Virus record (IMG/VR): IMGVR_UViG_3300032116_000104
Span: 20,373-84,372 of that record
Source of the DNA: a virus
Direction: 5' to 3' (one strand)
DNA length: 64,000 bases
Of the stretch, positions 46,069 to 58,836 are shown piece by piece. The translations under genes were made by a program, and so were the position numbers. Numbering within the stretch: position 1 is the stretch's first letter; the number at the start of each line of letters is the position of its first letter. A model generated the notes under the pieces. That model had not been told where the DNA came from. It ran no database searches and saw nothing but the letters and a program-made list of their open reading frames with translations.

Positions 46069-48747
46069 GTGACCAGGTTTGTAGGCACTCCGCTTACGGG
46101 TATTGAATTTGCCAGCGCCAGTAGCGAGGCATTTTCTGCTCGTGTTGATGAGGACAGTAATCCCCGCATTCGTATTGATGCTGGTGGACGAATCACTTGG
46201 TCATCTGGTGCTGCTTCTGGTGATGTCATTCTTGAAAGAAGTGCCGCCGACACTTTGTCTCTTGGGTCTGGGGATACATTCAAGACTCCAGTTATTTATG
46301 TAGACAATATTGAGATTGACCCGACTGGCGCCACGACTGGTCAAGTTCTCAAGTTTGATGGCGTGAAGTTTGCTCCCGCTGCCGACGCCACTGGTTCTGG
46401 TGGTTCTTCTAATCTTGACGACCTTCTTGATGTTGTCATTATCTCAGCGACCACTGGACAATTCCTTAAGTTCAATGGAACCAATTGGGTCAACAGCGCA
46501 ATCGCTCTTGACGATTTGTCGGATGTCGTTATTACTTCTCCAGAAGAGTTCCAAGGTCTTTCCTACAACGGAACATCTTGGGTGAATAGCCATATACCGC
46601 TTGTTTCTTATGTGCGCAATGCTGAGTCAACAACCATCACGACTGGAACATGCGTCTATCTTTTCGGTTCTACAGGCGACCACGCGACAGTCAAGAGAGC
46701 CGACAACGACTCCGATGCTACATCGTCCAAAACCATTGGTGTTGCTGGAGCAAACATTGCCGCTAGTCAAAATGGACCGATTATTACCCGTGGTTATGTT
46801 GATGGAATTGACCTTTCTACTGGTTATGACGCTGGCGACATTCTGTGGCTTGGTGAGGATGGCGGTTTTACAAAAACCAAGCCAACCGCACCCGAGCATA
46901 TAGTTTTCATTGGTGTAGTTGTTCGTGCAACCAGCAACGGCATCATTTATGTTGCGACACAAAACGGTTATGAACTTGACGAACTTCATGATGTTTCTAT
47001 CGCCAGTAGAACCTCTGGAGATTTTCTCAAGTACAACGGAACCCTGTGGGTTAACGACCAAATTGACCTTGGAACCGACACCGTTGGCAACTATATGGTT
47101 GATGTTTCTGCTGGTACTGGTGTAACGGTTACCCATACTCCATCAGAGGGCTCTACAGCCACTATCGCAATTGGTCAGGCTGTCGCCGCTACGGATTCTC
47201 CAACCTTTGCTGGGTTGACCATTAATGGACCAAGTATCGTTTTTGAAGGTGCTACTGCTGATTCTTTTGAGACGACACTGACTGTTGCAGACCCAACGAC
47301 TTCAGATAAAACAGTAACAATCCCCAATACAACTGGAACGCTTATCACAACTGGTGATACTGGAACCGTTACCAGCACGATGATTGCTGACAGCACAATT
47401 GTCAATGGGGACATAAGTGCTTCGGCTGCTATTGCTCTGTCAAAACTTGCTTCTGGAACATCAGGACAGATTGTTGTTGCGAATGCTTCTGGTGTCCCAA
47501 CATATACAACCGTATCTGGTGACATAACCATTAGCGACACTGGAGTGGCGGCTATTGCGGCAAACTCCGTTGCTCTTGGTACGGACACAACTGGTAACTA
47601 CGTGTCTGATGTGTCCGCTGGTACGGGCGTAACAGTCACCCATACGCCAGGAGAAGGTTCCACTGCAACTGTCGCAATTGGGCAGGCTGTCGCCGCTACG
47701 GATTCACCCACTTTTGCTGGATTAACAGCCGATAATGTCAAAATTGGCGTTACCGCTGCAGGTGAAATTGATACATCTACTGGAAACCTCACAATTGATT
47801 CCGCTGGCGGAACAGTAACGGTTGACGACAATCTAATCGTTACAGGTGACCTTACCGTCCAAGGAACAACCACGACAATTGAGACAACAAATCTCAATGT
47901 TGAAGACAACATCATTACCCTCAACTACGGCTATACGGGAACGCCAACAACACTGACTTCTGGAATAGAAGTTGAGCGTGGTACCGCTTCAAATGTTTCC
48001 ATCCGATGGAATGAACCTACTTCCACTTGGCAGTACACGGCAGACGGCACTCTATTTAACGACATCGGAAATACCAGTATAACTATCAGTGATTCTGCTC
48101 CATCGTCTCCTTCTGCTGGAGATTTGTGGTTTGAATCAGACTCTGGAAAAACATTTGTTTATTATGATTCTTTCTGGGTTGAGGTTGCTGGTGGTTCTGG
48201 TCCTATTGGTCCTCCTGGAATCATTGACGACCCTGGCAGAAAGATTGGTGAGTATTATGGCACCGTCGCAGCCAGCACCACCAGCCTTACGATGGTTGAG
48301 GACCGAACGTATTTCGCCCCCATTTACATCGGTACATCCACAACATTTGACCGCATCGGCATCCGCACACACTCCACATTCTCTGGTACTGCCACCGTCC
48401 GTCTCGGCGTCTACAATAACGGCGGCGGCGAACCCGCGACCGTGAGGTTTGACGCTGGTACCGTGTCCTGCACCGCCGCCAGCACGTTTTATCCCATCAC
48501 AATCAGCCAGACCCTCCCTGCTGGGTGGTACTGGCTGGCCTGCAATAGTCAAACAAACGCCACCACGAACACGTTTACCTCAACCTCGTTGGGAATAAAC
48601 TTCGGCATTCTAAAATACCCCTCTAATGGAGCCATCAACTTCACCGCCGCGCATTGGTACGAAGCGTCTGTTACGGGGGCTTTTGCTACGGCTGGCACCC
48701 TCGTACAGTCAGCAGAAACCCCCATTGTCGTAATGAGGACAGCATGA
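46069..48747 (+). CDS. Long tail fibre with duplicated block
   Basis: 892 residues from GTG (AAGGAG 11 nt upstream). The N-terminal 100 residues resemble a fibre attachment domain. Two copies of DDLLDVVI/DDLSDVVI with FLKFNGTNWVN modules follow, then a ~40-residue block SAGTGVTVTHT, then IGQAVAATDSPTFAGLT, present twice about 505 nt apart. A GPIGPPG hinge leads to a ~190-residue C-terminal domain (DRIGIRTHSTFSGTATVRLG) that is the likely receptor-binding tip. It overlaps the next gene by four bases. Confidence 0.85.
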   Translation: MTRFVGTPLTGIEFASASSEAFSARVDEDSNPRIRIDAGGRITWSSGAASGDVILERSAADTLSLGSGDTFKTPVIYVDNIEIDPTGATTGQVLKFDGVKFAPAADATGSGGSSNLDDLLDVVIISATTGQFLKFNGTNWVNSAIALDDLSDVVITSPEEFQGLSYNGTSWVNSHIPLVSYVRNAESTTITTGTCVYLFGSTGDHATVKRADNDSDATSSKTIGVAGANIAASQNGPIITRGYVDGIDLSTGYDAGDILWLGEDGGFTKTKPTAPEHIVFIGVVVRATSNGIIYVATQNGYELDELHDVSIASRTSGDFLKYNGTLWVNDQIDLGTDTVGNYMVDVSAGTGVTVTHTPSEGSTATIAIGQAVAATDSPTFAGLTINGPSIVFEGATADSFETTLTVADPTTSDKTVTIPNTTGTLITTGDTGTVTSTMIADSTIVNGDISASAAIALSKLASGTSGQIVVANASGVPTYTTVSGDITISDTGVAAIAANSVALGTDTTGNYVSDVSAGTGVTVTHTPGEGSTATVAIGQAVAATDSPTFAGLTADNVKIGVTAAGEIDTSTGNLTIDSAGGTVTVDDNLIVTGDLTVQGTTTTIETTNLNVEDNIITLNYGYTGTPTTLTSGIEVERGTASNVSIRWNEPTSTWQYTADGTLFNDIGNTSITISDSAPSSPSAGDLWFESDSGKTFVYYDSFWVEVAGGSGPIGPPGIIDDPGRKIGEYYGTVAASTTSLTMVEDRTYFAPIYIGTSTTFDRIGIRTHSTFSGTATVRLGVYNNGGGEPATVRFDAGTVSCTAASTFYPITISQTLPAGWYWLACNSQTNATTNTFTSTSLGINFGILKYPSNGAINFTAAHWYEASVTGAFATAGTLVQSAETPIVVMRTA

Positions 48748-49013
48748 GCCGTATTGTTACTTTTGGCCTTGGCGGGTACTGTAAAGATTGTGACCCGAGC
48801 CACGACCACCCCCTTCACAACATTGTTGAGGATGTGGTGGTTCCAGATGAGCCACAGCAGCCCCTATATGGCATTGCTCTTGTGGCTACACTGAATGCCG
48901 TGCTTGGCATATGGGGTCTTGAGGACGCAGCAAATATTGCTGGAGTTAGTCAAGATGATTTGATAGCCGAGGCGCAGGCTTGGCAAGTTGCTGGAGAGAA
49001 CAATGGCAATTGA
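48744..49013 (+). CDS. Small Cys/His-containing protein of the fibre module
   Basis: 89 residues from ATG 48744 overlapping the fibre stop (ATGA). FGLGGYCKDCDPSHDHPLHN holds CxxC plus three His, a possible metal site. The rest is helical (LEDAANIAGVSQDDLIAEAQ). Function unknown; coupled expression with fibres suggests a fibre accessory or chaperone. Confidence 0.7.
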   Translation: MSRIVTFGLGGYCKDCDPSHDHPLHNIVEDVVVPDEPQQPLYGIALVATLNAVLGIWGLEDAANIAGVSQDDLIAEAQAWQVAGENNGN

Positions 49014-49536
49014 TTTTCCCAACTCACCCACACTTAATCAAATCTTTACTGATAGTGGTAAGACATGGACATATGACGGTGAAAAATGGGTAAGCACCAA
49101 TCTTGCATCATTAGTAGGAGCAAAGGCTTACAGGTCGTCAAACCTGTCCAGAGCAAACAACTCTTTCGTCAACCTCTCCTTCAATGCTCAAGAGTACGAC
49201 ACTCATGCCTTCTTTGCTCCAACCTCAACCGACATGACAATTCCTTCTGGGCTAGATGGGTATTATCTTGTTCAGGGCTCCATTGAGTTTGCAGCCAATG
49301 CAACTGGTCTAAGAGAAGCAGGAATCCAGTTGAACGGCACAAACCTAACATATGTTTTTATACCTAGTGCTGGTTCTGTTTTTGCAACAATAGTCAATCT
49401 ATCTGCCATTGTTTATTGTGTGGCTACCGATGTCTTGACATTGGATAGTTATCAAAACTCTGGTGGTGCTTTGAACATTCTTGGGGCTTCCGTGCCTTCT
49501 CGTACTTGGTTTGCAATAACATTCTTGGGAGCGTAA
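49003..49536 (+). CDS. Short tail fibre with C1q/TNF-like head
   Basis: 177 residues. The N-terminus IDFPNSPTLNQIFTDSGKTW followed by TYDGEKWV is a repeated fibre attachment motif. The C-terminal ~120 residues read as a C1q/TNF-like jelly roll (FNAQEYDTHAFFAPTSTDMT, DGYYLVQGSIEFAANATGLR). It is likely a trimeric receptor-binding protein. The start overlaps the previous gene by 11 nt. Confidence 0.75.
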   Translation: MAIDFPNSPTLNQIFTDSGKTWTYDGEKWVSTNLASLVGAKAYRSSNLSRANNSFVNLSFNAQEYDTHAFFAPTSTDMTIPSGLDGYYLVQGSIEFAANATGLREAGIQLNGTNLTYVFIPSAGSVFATIVNLSAIVYCVATDVLTLDSYQNSGGALNILGASVPSRTWFAITFLGA

Positions 49537-49783: not shown

Positions 49784-50374
49784 ATGAAATACCCCTCAAT
49801 AAAACTCGTACTCCCCAAGGAACTCGCAAAGGTCCAGAACGGGAAACTCCCAGCCAATCTTCTCAAGAAGACGGCAATTGGCGGAAGGATGTACCACTGG
49901 GCGACTTTTGCCTTTGACATCATGAATGCCGAGGCAAAGAAGGCTGGCATTGAACTCGCCAACATCGGTGACTACCGCCCGTATGAGGGTCAGTTGTCCA
50001 TGTTCATGGACCGCTACTCGCAGACCGACACGGGCCGCAAGCCCACGGTGACGCGCAAGTTTGAGGGAAAGACCTGGTTCCTCAAGAAGGGGAAATCACC
50101 CTCGGGAACCCCTGGATTTTCCAATCATGGCATGGGTTTGGCGATTGATTTAGGAGTGAAAAAGAAGGGCAAGGTTGTTTCCCTTGCTTCTGACCCGAAG
50201 GTGATGCAGTGGATGTGCGACAACGCTCCCAAGTACGGCTTCTACCTGCAGGTCTCCGACCCAAAGAACCCAGAGTTTGAGGCATGGCACTGGCAGTACG
50301 CAGTTGGCGACAGCCTGCCACAGCCGTCAAAGGACCTGCTCGCTTACTTTGCAGCCGCCAAGAAGGGTAAGTAA
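49784..50374 (+). CDS. Endolysin, M15 D-Ala-D-Ala carboxypeptidase-like
   Basis: 196 residues. GFSNHGMGLAIDLG (S-x-H-x3-G-x-A-x-D) and EAWHWQY are the zinc-binding and catalytic motifs of VanY/M15B peptidases, which cut peptide cross-links in peptidoglycan. No cell-wall binding domain is present. It lies between fibre genes, near the membrane-protein genes at 52941-55065 that could act as holins. No SD: translation is probably leaderless. Confidence 0.9.
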   Translation: MKYPSIKLVLPKELAKVQNGKLPANLLKKTAIGGRMYHWATFAFDIMNAEAKKAGIELANIGDYRPYEGQLSMFMDRYSQTDTGRKPTVTRKFEGKTWFLKKGKSPSGTPGFSNHGMGLAIDLGVKKKGKVVSLASDPKVMQWMCDNAPKYGFYLQVSDPKNPEFEAWHWQYAVGDSLPQPSKDLLAYFAAAKKGK

Positions 50375-50447: not shown

Positions 50448-51125
50448 ATGGCTGGTCTTGGTGCCAAAACATTTACACCGTCTGAGGTGCTTACAGCGGC
50501 TGATGTCAACGGCTACTTCATGGACCAGGTTATTTGTAACTTCGCAGATATTGCTGCCGCAGATACTTTTTTTACGGCCAATCCATCTAGAAAGTTTGTT
50601 GGAAGAGTCATCTTCGCAGAGGACGAAGAAGCCCTCTATATCTGGGACGGAAGCGCATGGACCGCCCAGACGGCGATTATTGCTGATGGCTCAATTACCA
50701 CAGCAAAACTTAACCAAACAGCGTCTTCTGAAGCAGTAACTACGGCAACCATCAGAAACCTCAATGTCACTACTGCCAAGATTGCTGACCAGGCGGTTAC
50801 ATCCGCCAAACTCGGTCCAGTTGAAATTACTAGCATCACCACCAATACGACGTTAGCCCTAGTTCACTATGGAAAGATGCTAAGAGTCAATTCATCATCC
50901 GCAGTTACACTGACCGTTCCAGATAATGGAACTGTTGCATTCGCTACTGGTACAGAGATTTATGTTGTTCGCTATGGCACTGGAACTGTGACTTTTGCTG
51001 AAGGGTCTGGTGTCACGATTCTATCAGACACGAGCAGAAAGAACATCAAAACCCAATACTCAAGTGCCTCGGTGGTCAAGTTAGACACCAATGAGTGGTT
51101 GCTTACTGGCAACTTGGCGGATTAA
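50448..51125 (+). CDS. Tail/fibre protein
   Basis: 225 residues with AAGGA upstream. FTPSEVLTAADVNGYFMDQV is a start shared by fibre-type proteins, followed by FVGRVIFAEDEEALYIWDGS and a repeat-like ITTAKLNQTASSEAV / VTSAKLGPVEITS region. The C-terminus is beta-rich. Likely part of the adhesion apparatus. Confidence 0.7.
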   Translation: MAGLGAKTFTPSEVLTAADVNGYFMDQVICNFADIAAADTFFTANPSRKFVGRVIFAEDEEALYIWDGSAWTAQTAIIADGSITTAKLNQTASSEAVTTATIRNLNVTTAKIADQAVTSAKLGPVEITSITTNTTLALVHYGKMLRVNSSSAVTLTVPDNGTVAFATGTEIYVVRYGTGTVTFAEGSGVTILSDTSRKNIKTQYSSASVVKLDTNEWLLTGNLAD

Positions 51126-51127
51126 TA

Positions 51128-52837
51128 ATGTTCCGCAGGCTTGGAGCCATAGCGGGTCAGTCAACAGACGCACCGCCTGGTGCCCCAACTATCACCTCTG
51201 TTACTCCTGGAGACGGCACGCTATCAATAGCGTTCACTGCTCCAGTATCAGATGGTGGAAGACCTATCACCAACTACCAATACTCACTTGATAACGGTGC
51301 AAATTGGACGACAAGGTCCCCTGCTGCAACGTCGTCTCCAATACTGGTAAGCGAACTAAACAATGGCACTACATATCAAGTCATCATACGAGCCATAAAT
51401 ATTGAGGGCCTTGGCCAGAATTCCAACATGCTCAGCGGAACACCCAGGACAACCCCGTCTGCACCGCAGTCTGTTCTGGTGACTAATAGTGGCGGCGGAA
51501 TAAATCCACCAGTTGTCAACGTGTCTTTTTCTGCGCCAGCAAGCAATGGCGGAAATGAAATAACAAACTACGAATACAGCACAAACGGCGGTTCATCGTG
51601 GACTGCTCTAAGTCCTGCATCAACATCTTCTCCAATAAGTATCGCTGGCTTACTCAACTCAAGCACTTACAGTGTTGGAATACGTGCCGTCAATGGTGCT
51701 GGTTCTGGTGCGGCATCAGCATTCACCCCAATTAGACCTCTTCCGTCATTTGAAGCCACGCCCACGGCGACAACACCAGAAGTTTCTTCATATTCCGCGC
51801 AAAGCACTCAAACAGCGACATTTAGAACTGTCAACTGGACGGCAAACCTGAGTAACGACTTTGCCGCTGGCACATGGAACGTGACCCTGCACAGGGCGTC
51901 ACCAAGTTCAATTCTTATCACGAGCAGCAACTACACGGCAACCAACTCCACAAATGGTTCGTTTACCCTTGACTACAACACTTACCAAACTCATTGGGGG
52001 CAGGAAGTACACGCCATATTCACGATTACCGATGTTGACGGGCAAACTTCTTCATACCAGACCCCGAACTTCACATTGCCAGCGCTACAGACAACAACAG
52101 TCACTACATGGGACGATAGGTCAAGAACCTACAACGCCCCTTCATACATAAGCCCGCTATACAATGCCACCGAGAACGGATACCAGAAACCATCGGAGGC
52201 GGTTTTCCAATCATCGGCTTCAAGGGCTTTTGATAACGACTCGGATACTTCTTGGTCTATTGGTAGTGTTGTAACCACAAAATACTGTGAAGTATGGGCG
52301 CGATTTTTTGTAAGTGAAGGAATAATTGCAAACATTGTCTACGCTGGAAATACTGGGAATAACTTCAACAGCATGGTTACTCTTGGTCAAGAGCAAAGTG
52401 GTTTAATTATCAATACAGCAGTTCTTAATATGCGTGACTTTAGAAGCCGTCATACTTTTAGAACTGATAACTGGCTTTTTATGTACGACAATGTTGCTGA
52501 TGCATACAGGAATGGCAGCGGAACACAAAGAGGGACATTTCCCTCTGGCACAAACCTCTCTAGCCACAATAGTGAGCCCTTCATTTCAAGAAGGCTGTCT
52601 GATTCAACAGATATTCCGTCGGTCAATGGCGTGACATGGAACGAGACATGGTCAATGTCAAGTCTTGATGACTGGACAAGAGGAACTGTTTTTGGTATGC
52701 CTTATTTTGACGTGAATGTTTCTTTGGTGCAAAGAGGTAGTACTGGCGGCAACCTATGTGCCATTACCGATGTGCAGGTGTTGTGGGGGGCAACATTCCA
52801 GGAAATGTATTCATACAACACGACCACTTACAAGTGA
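51128..52837 (+). CDS. Adhesin-like tail protein with two fibronectin III domains
   Basis: 569 residues from ATG 51128 (an in-frame start at 51095 would overlap the previous gene). Two FN3 domains: about 17-110 (PITNYQYSLDNGANWTTRSP) and about 115-210 (EITNYEYSTNGGSSWTALSP). A beta-rich region (210-330) and a C-terminal domain (WSIGSVVTTKYCEVWARFFV) follow. FN3 domains are frequent on phage surface proteins and bind glycans or other proteins weakly. Confidence 0.85.
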   Translation: MFRRLGAIAGQSTDAPPGAPTITSVTPGDGTLSIAFTAPVSDGGRPITNYQYSLDNGANWTTRSPAATSSPILVSELNNGTTYQVIIRAINIEGLGQNSNMLSGTPRTTPSAPQSVLVTNSGGGINPPVVNVSFSAPASNGGNEITNYEYSTNGGSSWTALSPASTSSPISIAGLLNSSTYSVGIRAVNGAGSGAASAFTPIRPLPSFEATPTATTPEVSSYSAQSTQTATFRTVNWTANLSNDFAAGTWNVTLHRASPSSILITSSNYTATNSTNGSFTLDYNTYQTHWGQEVHAIFTITDVDGQTSSYQTPNFTLPALQTTTVTTWDDRSRTYNAPSYISPLYNATENGYQKPSEAVFQSSASRAFDNDSDTSWSIGSVVTTKYCEVWARFFVSEGIIANIVYAGNTGNNFNSMVTLGQEQSGLIINTAVLNMRDFRSRHTFRTDNWLFMYDNVADAYRNGSGTQRGTFPSGTNLSSHNSEPFISRRLSDSTDIPSVNGVTWNETWSMSSLDDWTRGTVFGMPYFDVNVSLVQRGSTGGNLCAITDVQVLWGATFQEMYSYNTTTYK

Positions 52838-52944
52838 TGTACGAGTTTCTTGGCGAGCCACTCCCCGAGAAACGAAAGAAAGACCCCTACTTCAATCAGC
52901 GACAAAGCAAGAAAATGCGCAAAAAGCGCAGGAAATATCGTTAG
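52837..52944 (+). CDS. Very small basic protein
   Basis: 35 residues, starting with an ATG that overlaps the previous stop (TGATG). MYEFLGEPLPEKRKKDPYFN followed by a Lys/Arg-rich tail. Coupled translation and a sensible stop support it. It converges with the leftward gene 52941-53108, overlapping by 4 nt. No function can be given. Confidence 0.5.
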   Translation: MYEFLGEPLPEKRKKDPYFNQRQSKKMRKKRRKYR

Positions 52945-53108
52945 TCTTTGTCTTTACTGAGAGCCACGCCCACAAGGTGGATAGCCAGCGCAATGCCGCT
53001 AATCCATAGGGCCTGGTTTCTTGTATCCCCAGAAAGGGTAATCAGCACTAGGGCAGTGCCAGCCAGCGTCCACGCAAGGGCGTGGAATTCCTTAACAAAC
53101 TTGAACAT
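52941..53108 (-). CDS. Small two-helix membrane protein (holin candidate)
   Basis: 55 residues: basic N-terminus FKFVKEFHALAW, a first hydrophobic helix (LAGTALVLITLSG), a short loop, a second (ALWISGIALAIHLVGVAL) and a charged end SKDKD. GAGGTG lies about 9 nt upstream of the ATG. It lies between endolysin and the lectin gene and is the right size for a class II-type holin. It starts 15 nt after the lectin stop on the same strand, so it may be co-transcribed with the lectin. Confidence 0.65.
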   Translation of the reverse strand: MFKFVKEFHALAWTLAGTALVLITLSGDTRNQALWISGIALAIHLVGVALSKDKD

Positions 53109-53123
53109 GTTCTTCACACCTCA

Positions 53124-54515
53124 TTATTTTCTTTTCCCACCAGAGCCACTGGATGCATTAGATGCAGCAGTGGGCAATGAAGATAGTACAGCACCAGCAG
53201 CGACCACAGCCCTACGAGTACCAACAGACACAGCCGAACCGACTGGAACGTAGTTGTCAAACTTTCCTCCGTAGACATTCACTTCATCCTCAAAGGCCTC
53301 CTTGATTTCTTCTGGGGCATTTTGGACAGCCGCGACTATTTGCGCAGCCTCTTCCTCTGTAATTTCATCCGTGTCAATCGCGTCAAATACTTCTGCGGCT
53401 TCATCTGGGCTCAGGGACACCAGCGCAGTGGCAGACACCGCGACACTCAACGCTTCCTCTGGAGAGATGTTTTCAGTAATTTCTGGAATGGTGGTTTCTG
53501 TAATTGTTGTTGTTGTCTCTGGAGCAGTGGTCGTAGTTGGGGGAATAGTCGTCTCTGGAACGGTTGTCGTCACAGGAGGAACCGTTGTGGTTGGGGGTAG
53601 GGTGGTAGTTGGAGGAAGAGTCGTGGTTGGGGGAACGGTTGTAGTAGGCGGAATCGTCGTCGTTGTCGGGGGCAATGTCGTGGTGGGAACTGGCGCATAC
53701 AGGGCCAAAACATAGAGTTTCTTGTAAACCCCAGGGCATGGGTCACCAAAGACCCCGTTGTTCGCAAAAAGGTCAGCATTATTGTTTCCAATGATTGCGG
53801 ACGCAACTATTTCTTCGCTTGATTGTGCATTACATATACCAACGCTGTAGGAGCCAGACGCTCCGTTGGGGGAGCCATAACTGGCAAAAACTATTTCTGT
53901 AAACACATGACCCTCTGGCGCAGACAGATTTCCCATAGACCCTTCCGTGAGTTCAATCCATGCACTGTTCGGTGGTGGCGGCGGGAGAACGACTTCGTGA
54001 AAAAGTGAAGCATTGGTGAAGGACGGGCCGTAACAACCAGCCCAATAGAGACCATTATCGCTACCAGTGATAAAAACTGTCACGGTCTCATTAGGTTGCG
54101 TGGTCTCCACTGAATGGGAAAACGTCTGTGACTCCTCTGGGGCCAGAACCCATCCAGAATAAAAAGCCTCATTTGAGTCCTGCACTACGACCTGATAGGC
54201 ACCACGGGCCCACGGCTCCACGCCATCCTTGACTGTGTAACTGAAGGTAACAATTCCTGGTGTGCTTATTGTCACACTCTGGGAAACCGTGTTAGTCACG
54301 TAAGAAAACTTGAGAGCGTTCTGCTCCCAGCCACCTATGGAGGGAACTCCACCAATGCAAGATGCGTTGTTTCCTCCGCTCCAGCCTCCGCCTCCAGCGG
54401 TAAAACTTCCATTGACTAGAAGATTGGCCGCCGACACTTGAGTTGCGCAAAGCGTGAGAAAGCAAAACAGCGCAGGGAAAAATACAATCAGAAACCTAGT
54501 AAAGTTTTGGCGCAT
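53124..54515 (-). CDS. Secreted SUEL-type lectin with mucin-like linker
   Basis: 463 residues from ATG 54515 (GGGGGTG upstream). Residues 1-29 are a signal peptide ending VSA. Residues 30-175 form a CBM-like sandwich (NLLVNGSF start). Residues 185-275 match the galactose/rhamnose-binding SUEL lectin fold: AWIELTEGSMGNLSAPEGH, ASYGSPNGASGSYSVGIC, and the diagnostic FGDPCPGVYKKLYVLALY. Residues 277-347 are a Thr/Pro (TTTxPP) mucin-like linker. Residues 350-463 are a helical C-terminal domain of unknown family. It should be exported by the host Sec pathway and sit at or leave the cell surface, binding glycans. The opposite orientation and own promoter mark it as an accessory (moron) gene. Confidence 0.8.
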   Translation of the reverse strand: MRQNFTRFLIVFFPALFCFLTLCATQVSAANLLVNGSFTAGGGGWSGGNNASCIGGVPSIGGWEQNALKFSYVTNTVSQSVTISTPGIVTFSYTVKDGVEPWARGAYQVVVQDSNEAFYSGWVLAPEESQTFSHSVETTQPNETVTVFITGSDNGLYWAGCYGPSFTNASLFHEVVLPPPPPNSAWIELTEGSMGNLSAPEGHVFTEIVFASYGSPNGASGSYSVGICNAQSSEEIVASAIIGNNNADLFANNGVFGDPCPGVYKKLYVLALYAPVPTTTLPPTTTTIPPTTTVPPTTTLPPTTTLPPTTTVPPVTTTVPETTIPPTTTTAPETTTTITETTIPEITENISPEEALSVAVSATALVSLSPDEAAEVFDAIDTDEITEEEAAQIVAAVQNAPEEIKEAFEDEVNVYGGKFDNYVPVGSAVSVGTRRAVVAAGAVLSSLPTAASNASSGSGGKRK

Positions 54516-54532
54516 ACACACCCCCAGGGATA

Positions 54533-54541
54533 ATTCTACCA
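54533..54541 (-). promoter_or_regulatory. Extended -10 promoter of the lectin gene
   Basis: On the minus strand 54541-54533 reads TGGTAGAAT (TG-n-TAGAAT), 17 nt before ATG 54515. Confidence 0.5.
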
Positions 54542-54581
54542 TCCATTGTGCCTACTAATGACAGGGTGGCACTTGCCGTCG

Positions 54582-54590: not shown

Positions 54591-54626
54591 CAATGAGCAG
54601 TAAAAACTGCTTCGTTACGGGTGGTG

Positions 54627-54812
54627 ATGGTGTTGACCGAGGGAATAGTGATTGCGGTAATCGCAGCAAGCGGCACAATTACCGCTGCTCTCATAAACAA
54701 GATGCGCAGAGAAAATAGAAGTGACCATGACCTTGTGGTTTCTTCACTTGACAGAATTGAGTCAAAAATTGACGAACACATCGCTGACCACGCCCGTGGT
54801 GAGTTTGAATAA
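54627..54812 (+). CDS. Single-TM coiled-coil membrane protein (DUF2746-type)
   Basis: 61 residues. An N-terminal TM (GIVIAVIAASGTITAALI) is followed by KMRRENRSDHDLVVSSLDRI and an acidic/basic heptad tail. The TM-plus-coil plan resembles small actinophage lysis-region proteins (I believe Pfam DUF2746). Probably inserted in the membrane with the coil in the cytoplasm. It may act with the next gene in lysis. Confidence 0.7.
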   Translation: MVLTEGIVIAVIAASGTITAALINKMRRENRSDHDLVVSSLDRIESKIDEHIADHARGEFE

Positions 54813-56559: not shown

Positions 56560-57739
56560 GAACCTGAAGGGGAAGTTCACTTCCCTGTCTGAAGAAAAAA
56601 AGAAAGAGCAGTCCAAGAAGGACGTGCTCGGCGGTATTGCCGAGATGCTCGCTCGCAAGAACATCTCCCTTGATGAGATTGGCGACATCAAGAGGGTGTC
56701 GGTCTACCAGTCCATCATCAAGAACGACCTCGGGGAGGCAGAGGTCCAAGACCTCACCGCAATCCAGTTTTCTCCCAAATGGGAGTCTGGTCCAGAGTGG
56801 CCCGTCGTCCAACAGGGCAAGCCCGTACAACTACCAAAGTCAACGACAAAACCAGTCAAGAAGACAGGTTACAAAACCTGCGTTATCGTCCCTGATATAC
56901 AGATTGGTTACTACCGTAACTTTGATGGAACCCTGGAGCCGACCCACGACGAGTCCGCTATTGACATCTGCTTGGCGATGATTCGTGACCTCAAGCCAGA
57001 GGTGATTGCCTGCGTCGGTGACAACCTTGACCTCCCAGAGATGGGCAAGTACATCACCTACCCAGCCTACGCCCAGACCACCCAGGCTTCCATTGACCGA
57101 GCCACCCTGTTCTGTGCCCAGATGCGGGAAGCCGCCCCTCACGCAAAGATTGTGTGGCTGGCTGGTAACCACGAGGAGCGCATGCCCAAGTACCTGGTCC
57201 AGAACGCCACGGCGGCCTATGGACTCAGGAAGGGCAATGCCCCAGAATCCTGGCCAGTGCTATCAGTTCCCTATCTCTGCCGAATGGACGAATTTGGCGT
57301 GGAATACAAGCCTGGATACCCAGCGGCGGATTTCTGGATTAACAAGAAACTGAAAATCATCCACGGCGACCGCGTGAAGTCTTCTGGGTCAACCGCCCAT
57401 GTATATCTCAATGCCGAGAAGGTGTCGGTTATCTACGGGCACATCCACCGCATTGAGACCGCCTTCAAGACCCGCGAGGACTACGAGGGACCAAAGACCG
57501 TCATGGCAGCATCCCCAGGGTGTCTCGCCCGTATTGACGGTGCTATCCCATCCACGAAGGGTGGCGTAGACCTTGACGGGCGCCCACTCACCAGACACGA
57601 GAACTGGCAGCAAGGCGTGGGAGTAGTCACCTTTGAGGACACAGGAGAGCATAAGTTCTCCTACGAGGTGGCTGTCATCTATGACGGTTGGACCATGTTC
57701 CGTGGTCACGAGTACGGGTCCAAAAAGCCGAAGAAGTGA
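56552..57739 (+). CDS. Calcineurin-like metallophosphoesterase
   Basis: 395 residues from ATG 56552. The N-terminal 110 residues are helical and charged. The metal-site motifs are in order: PDIQIGYY, GDNLDLPE, GNHEER, IHGDRV and YGHIHR, with a substitution of His by Gln in the first (DxQ not DxH). The family hydrolyses phosphoesters of nucleotides, DNA or RNA. It overlaps the Ntn-hydrolase gene by four bases. Confidence 0.9.
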   Translation: MAENLKGKFTSLSEEKKKEQSKKDVLGGIAEMLARKNISLDEIGDIKRVSVYQSIIKNDLGEAEVQDLTAIQFSPKWESGPEWPVVQQGKPVQLPKSTTKPVKKTGYKTCVIVPDIQIGYYRNFDGTLEPTHDESAIDICLAMIRDLKPEVIACVGDNLDLPEMGKYITYPAYAQTTQASIDRATLFCAQMREAAPHAKIVWLAGNHEERMPKYLVQNATAAYGLRKGNAPESWPVLSVPYLCRMDEFGVEYKPGYPAADFWINKKLKIIHGDRVKSSGSTAHVYLNAEKVSVIYGHIHRIETAFKTREDYEGPKTVMAASPGCLARIDGAIPSTKGGVDLDGRPLTRHENWQQGVGVVTFEDTGEHKFSYEVAVIYDGWTMFRGHEYGSKKPKK

Positions 57740-58410
57740 CAACGCTCGTCGGTATCCAAGGCGACGGATATGCCGTCGTGGGAGCCGATACCCAAATCAC
57801 CTCTTTTGACAATTCGGGCAACCCTTACCAGATATCCAATCTCGCCTCTGGTTCTGCGAAGATAGCAACCAATGGGAAGTACATCCTGGGGGCGGCGGGA
57901 GACATGCGGGCAATCAATCTGCTTCACCATGCCTTTGCTCCCCCTGCCCCACCCCAGGAGGCAAGAGGAAAGAAACTTGACTCCTTCATTACTGCTAAAT
58001 TTATCCCAGCACTAACCGAGTGCTTTGATACTTACGGGTATTCCGTCCCTGATGGGAAGGACAATAAGGACCACTCCAGCGAGCAAAACTCCACAATCAT
58101 CGTGGTCGTTAATGCGACTATCTACCTGATAGAGAATGACTACTCCTGGACCTCCGAGGCCAGTGGAATGTATGCGGCTGGCTCTGGCGCCCCCTATGCA
58201 CTGGGGGCACTGAGCGTCCTGTCCCCCAAGAAGGGCATGAATCTCCAACAGGCCAAGGCGGCGCTTCTTAAAGCCCTCTGGACGGCAGCCAAGTTGGACC
58301 CAAACACGGGGAGCCCTTTCCATACCCTCTCCCAGGAGACTGGCACCACGGAGAAGGTCGTCCCCATCAAGTCTGCCCCAGCAAGACCGAAGACTACGAG
58401 GAAGAAGTGA
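57736..58410 (+). CDS. Proteasome/HslV-like Ntn hydrolase
   Basis: 224 residues from GTG 57736, overlapping the previous stop (GTGA). The first residues are M-T-T-L-V-G-I: after Met removal Thr is N-terminal, as the nucleophile of proteasome beta subunits and HslV. GADTQIT places Asp at mature residue 17, and SGSAKIATNGKYILGAAGD supplies the Lys (mature 41, with an ~8-residue insert relative to Lys33). HslV-like peptidases need an AAA+ partner; none is visible here. The C-terminus has low-complexity Pro/Lys residues. A longer start (57688) would mask the nucleophile, so it is rejected. Confidence 0.8.
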   Translation: MTTLVGIQGDGYAVVGADTQITSFDNSGNPYQISNLASGSAKIATNGKYILGAAGDMRAINLLHHAFAPPAPPQEARGKKLDSFITAKFIPALTECFDTYGYSVPDGKDNKDHSSEQNSTIIVVVNATIYLIENDYSWTSEASGMYAAGSGAPYALGALSVLSPKKGMNLQQAKAALLKALWTAAKLDPNTGSPFHTLSQETGTTEKVVPIKSAPARPKTTRKK

Positions 58411-58503: not shown

Positions 58504-58836
58504 ATGTCAGATAAAGATACCCAGAAGAAAGTTCCCCAACCAGATAAATCTATTGATATACCAGATTCAAACTGGTTTGACTATGCAGCATGCAAGGGAC
58601 TGACCCAACTCATGTTCCCCAAGGAACACAAGGATATTACCTACATCGCACAGGCAAGAGCCATCTGTAGGGAGTGCCCAGTAAAGCCTCAGTGCCTGGA
58701 GTATGCCCTGGAGTTCCCACCTGCTGACATGCATGGGGTATGGGCTGGACTGACTAGCAGACAGTTGGCTGCGGAGCAAAGACGCAGGGGAGTAAAGCCG
58801 ATTAGACCGACGCTCAGCCAAATGTGGGGGGACTAG
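58504..58836 (+). CDS. WhiB-family Fe-S transcription regulator
   Basis: 110 residues with GGGGGGAAG upstream. Four cysteines in the WhiB pattern: AACKG, then ICRECPVKPQC, with GVWAGLTSRQ after the last Cys. WhiB proteins are confined to actinobacteria and their phages, bind 4Fe-4S clusters and act with sigma factors. It is rightward but converges on the leftward early operon, overlapping it by 4 nt. Confidence 0.93.
   Translation: MSDKDTQKKVPQPDKSIDIPDSNWFDYAACKGLTQLMFPKEHKDITYIAQARAICRECPVKPQCLEYALEFPPADMHGVWAGLTSRQLAAEQRRRGVKPIRPTLSQMWGD

What the first reader, a model, noticed from the sequence alone, without database searches (positions are those of the whole stretch)
53124..54541. Phage gene for a secreted SUEL-type lectin with mucin-like linker
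Signal peptide, sandwich domain, a SUEL (galactose/rhamnose-binding) lectin domain with FGDPCPGVYKKLYV, TTTxPP linker and an unknown C-terminal domain in one protein. SUEL lectins are best known from eukaryotes. The gene is a moron with own extended -10 promoter. It could alter the host surface, block superinfection, or mediate aggregation or grazing interactions.
Basis: partly seen in the sequence, partly recalled or inferred. Interest (0 to 1): 0.78.

Follow-up and report, generated by a model that had tools for sequence, protein, structure and literature searches.

The report
Phage membrane-anchored lectin with two-helix partner
A virus of actinobacteria carries a gene for a sugar-binding protein that is exported and fixed in the host cell's membrane, always together with (or fused to) a tiny two-helix membrane protein and usually beside the genes that burst the cell; this is a widespread but undescribed phage unit, probably acting on the surface of the infected cell around lysis.

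Summary
The ORF at 53124-54542 (minus) encodes a signal peptide, a carbohydrate-module-like jelly roll, a true SUEL domain (Pfam PF02140, 37.1 bits against a cut-off of 31.4), a Thr/Pro linker and a helical C-terminal module with a membrane helix. All six sugar-contact residues known from the salmon lectin CSL3 are kept, but only one of four disulfides.

The interpretation changes in three ways. (1) SUEL is not special to eukaryotes here: 38 bacterial and 61 viral loci were found. (2) The protein is probably membrane-anchored, not free. The C-terminal module defines a large phage family (more than 80 IMG/VR loci; a 57%-identical stretch in one of 50,697 deposited phage records) with swapped ectodomains (SUEL, PA14, L-type lectin, CBM-like, fn3). 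(3) An unlisted 55-aa two-helix protein (52941-53108, minus) lies directly downstream; in relatives it is either the next gene or fused as the C-terminal tail, without exception where the flank is complete.

In 49 of 55 loci the unit lies within 2.5 kb of a holin-like and/or M15 endolysin gene. A rare bacterial chromosomal copy lacks lysis genes. Best reading: a wall-spanning lectin acting with a holin-like partner on the infected cell's envelope around lysis. The role is inferred, not shown.

The parts
53124..54542 (-). lectin gene, 472 aa as listed; likely start M10 at 54515 (about 463 aa)
   Evidence: SD-like GGGGGTG at 54519-54525 before the ATG at 54515
54429..54515 (-). signal peptide (residues 10-38, MRQNFTRFLIVFFPALFCFLTLCATQVSA|AN)
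   Evidence: hydrophobic segment 17-33, mean KD 2.6; AxA-like site; no lipobox (LTLC)
53982..54428 (-). N-terminal jelly-roll, carbohydrate-module-like domain (residues 39-187)
   Evidence: AF2 model and VIA-align Z 15.1 to 2e33 (Fbs1), 13.2 to CBM61, 12.7 to CBM16; homologous domain in 24 sequences of the family set
53688..53969 (-). SUEL lectin domain (residues 192-285)
   Evidence: PF02140 37.1 bits; PDB 5h4s; fold Z 12.3 rmsd 1.8; sugar-site residues E200,Y222,N262,D267,G271,K274 conserved
53484..53687 (-). Thr/Pro-rich linker (residues 286-353)
   Evidence: sequence; pLDDT under 50 for 295-353
53223..53483 (-). conserved helical C-terminal module (residues 354-440)
   Evidence: tblastn/HMM family of more than 80 IMG/VR loci; helices 361-420, pLDDT 85-97
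53160..53210 (-). membrane helix (residues 445-461) before basic tail GKRK
   Evidence: predicted helix 440-455; VGxRR-helix-basic tail pattern conserved
52941..53108 (-). small two-TM partner protein, 55 aa (58 aa if GTG at 53117)
   Evidence: phrog_29041, unknown function, E 1.4e-13; homologous to the fused tail of DSL-LC01 (E 1e-8) and of L040 (E 1e-7)
54533..54541 (-). extended -10-like promoter TGGTAGAAT
   Evidence: sequence; not covered by the sigma-70 scan
52916..52930 (-). terminator-like hairpin followed by T-rich tail, about 10 nt after the small gene
   Evidence: pattern only: 4 such sites found against 2.0 expected
49784..50374 (+). neighbour: M15/VanY endolysin-type peptidase
   Evidence: PF02557 E 1.5e-18; same family next to the unit in relatives
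54621..54812 (+). neighbour: small one-TM protein, phrog_32850; homologue directly after the fused gene in L132
54835..55065 (+). neighbour: small TM protein with FLDDGKLD tail, holin-like (phrog_26427 labelled nuclease E 8e-22; phrog_443 holin E 0.0014)
   Evidence: homologue next to the unit in most relatives

Best explanation
The gene and the small ORF behind it form a two-protein envelope unit. Shown by sequence: the large protein carries an export signal, two carbohydrate-binding-type domains on a Thr/Pro stalk, a helical membrane-proximal module and a C-terminal membrane helix; the small protein has two membrane helices and is either the next gene or fused to the large one. Inferred: they sit together in the infected cell's membrane, the stalk spans the wall, and the SUEL and jelly-roll domains bind rhamnose/galactose-type glycans of the infected cell's own envelope (in cis). 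Because the unit lies beside holin-like and endolysin genes in most relatives, and the small partner has the shape of the short two-TM holin-like proteins of actinobacteriophage lysis cassettes, I infer that it acts around lysis: either coupling the membrane to the outer wall during disruption or setting lysis timing, with a possible side effect of masking receptor glycans on debris. The ectodomain is swapped between phages while the anchor stays constant, as expected if it follows host glycan diversity.
For: SUEL domain and fold. Six of six CSL3 sugar-contact residues (named in PMC3269628) conserved in essentially all of 41 family SUEL domains, with the C4-C7 cysteine pair kept. CBM-like N-domain. 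Signal-peptide-like segment in 102 of 104 5'-complete members. C-module and membrane helix conserved in more than 80 viral loci. Small partner directly downstream in the split loci, as the fused tail in the others; the only exceptions (L068, L152) end at the contig edge. Full-length fused orthologue L132, 42% identical over 504 aa, plus partner-tail homology. Holin-like and/or M15 endolysin gene within 2.5 kb in 49 of 55 dereplicated loci with enough flank; same-strand holin-like gene within 600 bp in 33 of 55. Two-TM holin-like proteins, predicted N-in-C-in, are standard in actinobacteriophage lysis cassettes and affect lysis (PMC9671378, PMC13056207). WhiB gene in the window points to an actinobacterial host.
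Against: In the window itself the unit points against its neighbours and has its own promoter-like and terminator-like sites, so it need not be expressed with the lysis genes. One bacterial chromosome (G106) carries the same split unit with an RCC1 ectodomain among housekeeping genes and no lysis genes, so the unit can exist without lysis. The holin-like label of the neighbour rests on weak PHROG matches, and its best PHROG is labelled 'nuclease'. The membrane helix of the window protein is short and weakly hydrophobic (mean 1.52). The AF2 model of the fused tail is poor in the 2TM part, so contact between the helices is not shown. No sugar was tested.
Confidence: 0.4

Rival explanations
1. 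Receptor masking: the anchored lectin covers rhamnose/galactose receptor glycans on the infected cell and on its debris, blocking superinfection and loss of progeny, independent of lysis itself. The 2TM protein is only an anchor or stabiliser.
For: Anchored, wall-spanning architecture with conserved sugar sites; ectodomain swapping on a constant anchor; own promoter-like and terminator-like sites in the window; bacterial copy without lysis genes.
Against: Strong lysis-gene neighbourhood in relatives suggests late expression, too late for most superinfection blocks; no domain shared with the tail proteins in the window.
Confidence: 0.3
2. Adhesion in trans: lectin-coated infected cells stick to other bacteria, particles or protist grazers, spreading progeny or changing grazing.
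For: Adhesin-like modules (SUEL, PA14, L-type lectin, fn3, RCC1, LCCL) on a mucin-like stalk; freshwater phages have been proposed to act on grazers with other proteins (PMC6802176).
Against: Does not explain the obligate two-TM partner or the lysis neighbourhood; no direct evidence.
Confidence: 0.15
3. Virion component or freely secreted lectin.
For: Borders tail genes (50448-52837); SUEL also occurs in phage proteins of another class without signal peptide (L148 type).
Against: Signal peptide, C-terminal membrane helix, obligate membrane partner, opposite strand to the tail genes.
Confidence: 0.07
4. Ordinary accessory gene: a chance capture of a bacterial surface protein with no selected function in the phage.
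For: Host-type bacteria have their own SUEL proteins with C-terminal membrane helix and basic tail (L100, L102).
Against: Conserved sugar sites, invariant pairing, and recurrence in dozens of diverged phages.
Confidence: 0.03

Closest known systems
SUEL / rhamnose-binding lectin domain (PF02140), e.g. SUL-I (5h4s), CSL3 (2zx0), latrophilin lectin domain
   Same: Fold; DPC motif; the six primary sugar-contact residues
   Different: Single domain, 2 instead of 8 cysteines, FASYG(S/T)P instead of YGR, mounted on a phage membrane anchor
Host-type membrane-anchored SUEL proteins of Ilumatobacteraceae/Actinomycetota MAGs (L100, L102)
   Same: Exported, SUEL domain, C-terminal membrane helix and Arg-rich tail
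   Different: The conserved phage C-module was not found in these genomes; small partner not recognised
Two-TM holin-like proteins of actinobacteriophage lysis cassettes (LysF1a of Girr/NBJ; Gordonia phage group resembling R21 pinholin)
   Same: Short, two TM helices, charged C-terminus, near endolysin genes (resembles the small partner)
   Different: No sequence link found; none is reported in those papers as paired with or fused to a lectin
T4 holin T with antiholin RI (from general knowledge)
   Same: A lysis membrane protein regulated by an exported domain outside the membrane
   Different: No lectin; different topology and no homology shown
Actinomycetia phage DSL-LC01 WJZ48438 (phage of PMC10611076)
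   Same: Fused member of the same family: 57% identity in the C-module; its tail matches the small partner (E 1e-8)
   Different: No SUEL; annotated only as hypothetical protein

Membership tests
SUEL lectin domain (PF02140) | Match above the curated cut-off | tested here: met
   37.1 vs 31.4 bits
SUEL lectin domain (PF02140) | Fold of solved SUEL domains | tested here: met
   Z 12.3, rmsd 1.8 A to 5h4s; Z about 12 to latrophilins
SUEL lectin domain (PF02140) | Primary sugar-site residues Glu7, Tyr27, Asn74, Asp79, Gly83, Lys86 of CSL3 | tested here: met
   E200, Y222, N262, D267, G271, K274
Classical animal rhamnose-binding lectins | Four disulfides (8 Cys) | tested here: not met
   Two Cys in 40 of 41 family domains; positions correspond to C4-C7
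Classical animal rhamnose-binding lectins | YGR motif | tested here: not met
   FASYGSP in the window, FASYGTP in relatives
Classical animal rhamnose-binding lectins | DPC motif | tested here: met
   FGDPCPGVYKKL
Classical animal rhamnose-binding lectins | Binding of L-rhamnose/D-galactose | not testable with these tools
   needs glycan array or ITC
Class II-type holin (small partner) | Two TM helices, short, charged C-terminus | tested here: met
   segments 10-26 and 34-50 of 55 aa, tail SKDKD
Class II-type holin (small partner) | Sequence match to a known holin family | tested here: not met
   phrog_29041, unknown function; no Pfam match
Class II-type holin (small partner) | Membrane permeabilisation / lysis timing | not testable with these tools
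   needs expression and lysis assays
Spanin | Outer-membrane lipoprotein signal (lipobox) | tested here: not met
   signal region reads FCFLTLCATQVSA; LTLC is not a lipobox; actinobacterial host inferred
Moron (autonomous transcription unit) | Own promoter and terminator, opposite strand to neighbours | tested here: inconclusive
   Extended -10-like and terminator-like sites flank the pair; pattern matches only; relatives mostly co-directional with lysis genes
Known anti-phage defence protein | Match in PADLOC | tested here: not met
   no match for either protein

The most novel reading that the evidence does not exclude
A lectin-gated holin: the exported lectin senses glycans (own wall, debris or neighbouring cells) and, through its membrane helix, controls the two-TM holin-like partner, so that lysis timing responds to the extracellular glycan state. 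This would be a lectin-based counterpart of T4 lysis inhibition.
Probability: 0.12. Interest if true: 0.88.

Novelty: new variant of a known kind. Interest (0 to 1): 0.6.

Why it matters
If right, many uncultured phages of actinobacteria carry a modular, exchangeable sugar-binding ectodomain on a constant membrane anchor tied to a holin-like protein next to the lysis genes. This links phage exit to envelope glycans, which is testable and would explain a set of large 'hypothetical' phage proteins with linkers and lectin domains. It also shows that SUEL lectin domains are common in bacteria and phages, so their presence in a phage needs no eukaryotic donor.

Tried and rejected
1) Eukaryote-derived lectin: rejected as the default, because closer SUEL domains exist in bacteria and other phages (up to about 52% identity). 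2) Known phage family for the large protein: none in PHROGs. 3) Relatives among deposited phages: only the metagenome-assembled DSL-LC01 in 50,697 phage records. 4) Bacterial origin of the C-module: no match in the pattern scan of 84,980 genomes; one genome (G106) in HMM searches of order samples and a phylum sample (the samples overlap). 5) Shared domain between lectin and tail proteins in the window: none. 6) Fold of the fused 2TM tail: AF2 too poor (pLDDT 61), no fold search made. 7) Defence system: no PADLOC match. 8) Literature: no paper found on phage SUEL proteins or lectins in phage lysis cassettes; the library is partial.

Full report
What was checked. The ORF at 53124-54542 (minus strand) is real, 472 aa. 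A GGGGGTG stretch just before M10 and a TGGTAGAAT extended -10-like site that overlaps the upstream ATG suggest translation from M10 (54515). Pfam assigns PF02140 above its cut-off (37.1 vs 31.4 bits), and 14 control genomes are negative. PDB sequence search returns sea-urchin SUL-I with all three domains (E 5.5e-23) and a plant SUEL domain. The AlphaFold2 model gives two well-predicted beta-rich domains: residues 38-185 match sugar-recognising Fbs1 and CBM61/CBM16/CBM4 jelly rolls (Z up to 15.1), and residues 192-285 match SUL-I (Z 12.3, rmsd 1.8 A) and latrophilin lectin domains. PMC3269628 lists the CSL3 contact residues; mapped by alignment they are E200, Y222, N262, D267, G271 and K274, and they are nearly invariant in 41 family SUEL domains although the classical eight cysteines are reduced to the C4-C7 pair. 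The protein is 100% identical, with no nucleotide change in the gene, in three other IMG/VR contigs.

The C-terminus is the key. The C-terminal module (A2) finds 83 relatives in IMG/VR (80 kept) and none in the pattern scan of bacterial genomes. The relatives share an N-terminal hydrophobic segment (102 of 104 5'-complete members), long Thr/Pro linkers, the helical module and a membrane helix between VGxRR and a basic tail. Their ectodomains differ: among 54 dereplicated members Pfam finds SUEL in 26 (inflated, since part of the set was fetched through SUEL), PA14 in 15, fn3 in 5, L-type lectin in 2, PPC in 2 and LCCL in 1. A second C-module subtype (GADMSxxEREE...VVVASVIVGAIASLSIRRM) occurs in many other SUEL-bearing phage contigs.

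The hidden partner. Directly after the lectin gene lies an unlisted ORF, 52941-53108 (minus): MFKFVKEFHALAWTLAGTALVLITLSGDTRNQALWISGIALAIHLVGVALSKDKD, phrog_29041 of unknown function. In long relatives the same sequence is the C-terminal tail of the large protein: tblastn of the small protein against 50,697 phage records hits only the C-terminus of the DSL-LC01 protein (E 1e-8), and it aligns with the tail of L040 (E 1e-7). L132 is a full-length fused orthologue (42% over 504 aa). A small two-TM ORF was found directly downstream (starting within 12 nt of the stop) for 87 entries with 49 distinct sequences; every family member without one is either fused or ends at the contig edge (L068, L152). 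The 87 entries include copies of the same contigs, so the number of independent cases is smaller. Split and fused forms of one unit argue that the two proteins work together (inference).

Neighbourhood. In 55 dereplicated loci with at least 2 kb downstream, 49 have a holin-like small TM protein and/or an M15 endolysin within 2.5 kb, and 33 have the holin-like gene on the same strand within 600 bp (clusters; endolysin naming). The holin-like label is weak: phrog_443 holin at E 0.0014 to 5e-4, while the best PHROG, 26427, is called nuclease. In the window the pair is inverted relative to these genes and is framed by an extended -10-like site and a terminator-like hairpin (pattern matches only). 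The host is probably an actinobacterium: WhiB at 58504-58836, TerL nearest to Gordonia phages at 41%, a family member in an 'Actinomycetia' phage.

Outside phages. One genome (G106) has the split unit with RCC1 repeats and a DUF4082 domain as ectodomain and a 92-aa downstream two-TM protein, among chromosomal genes with the same GC content and 0.8 kb from a tRNA-Gly. A domesticated phage piece or a native bacterial unit cannot be told apart. SUEL itself is found in 38 bacterial loci, two of which (L100, L102) encode exported SUEL proteins with a C-terminal helix and Arg-rich tail.

Mechanism. Shown: domain content, export signal, membrane segments, the conserved sugar-site signature, pairing or fusion, and neighbourhood. 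Inferred: membrane display, glycan binding, cooperation of the two proteins, action around lysis. Short two-TM proteins, predicted N-in-C-in, are typical of actinobacteriophage lysis cassettes and influence lysis timing (PMC9671378, PMC13056207). I therefore favour an envelope role at lysis (0.4) over pure receptor masking (0.3) and trans adhesion (0.15). The bacterial copy without lysis genes is the main point against a strict lysis function.

Novelty. The SUEL domain and phage SUEL proteins are not new as sequences: automatic names exist in UniProt. The unit, an exchangeable lectin ectodomain on a constant anchor with an obligate split or fused two-TM partner near lysis genes, was not found described in the papers searched.

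Noticed in passing
window 57688-58410 (+): Protein with a proteasome-subunit match (PF00227, E 7e-7, over cut-off): a phage-encoded proteasome beta-like protein; related ORFs occur in 10 of the dereplicated loci.
   Followed up: no
window 58504-58836 (+): WhiB transcription factor gene (PF02467), pointing to an actinobacterial host.
   Followed up: partly
window 49218-49332: 115 bp absent in the near-identical contig L002, and the L004 contig ends exactly at 49333: an indel or variable site inside the tail-protein ORF 48988-49536.
   Followed up: no
window 47068-47219 and a second copy within ORF 46069-48747: Internal duplication of about 152 bp, 80% identical, in the tail-fibre-like ORF.
   Followed up: no
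L130 residues about 338-398: LCCL domain (PF03815, over cut-off), another domain known mainly from eukaryotes, in the same family of phage proteins.
   Followed up: no
L148, L157-L159, L164, L171, L174, L175, L178, L185: A different class of phage SUEL proteins without signal peptide, starting MGFK/MGYK...CG with SUEL at the N-terminus.
   Followed up: no
L189 10577-13626 (genome G106): Bacterial chromosomal copy of the unit with RCC1 repeats and DUF4082, next to a tRNA-Gly and a methyltransferase-like gene.
   Followed up: partly
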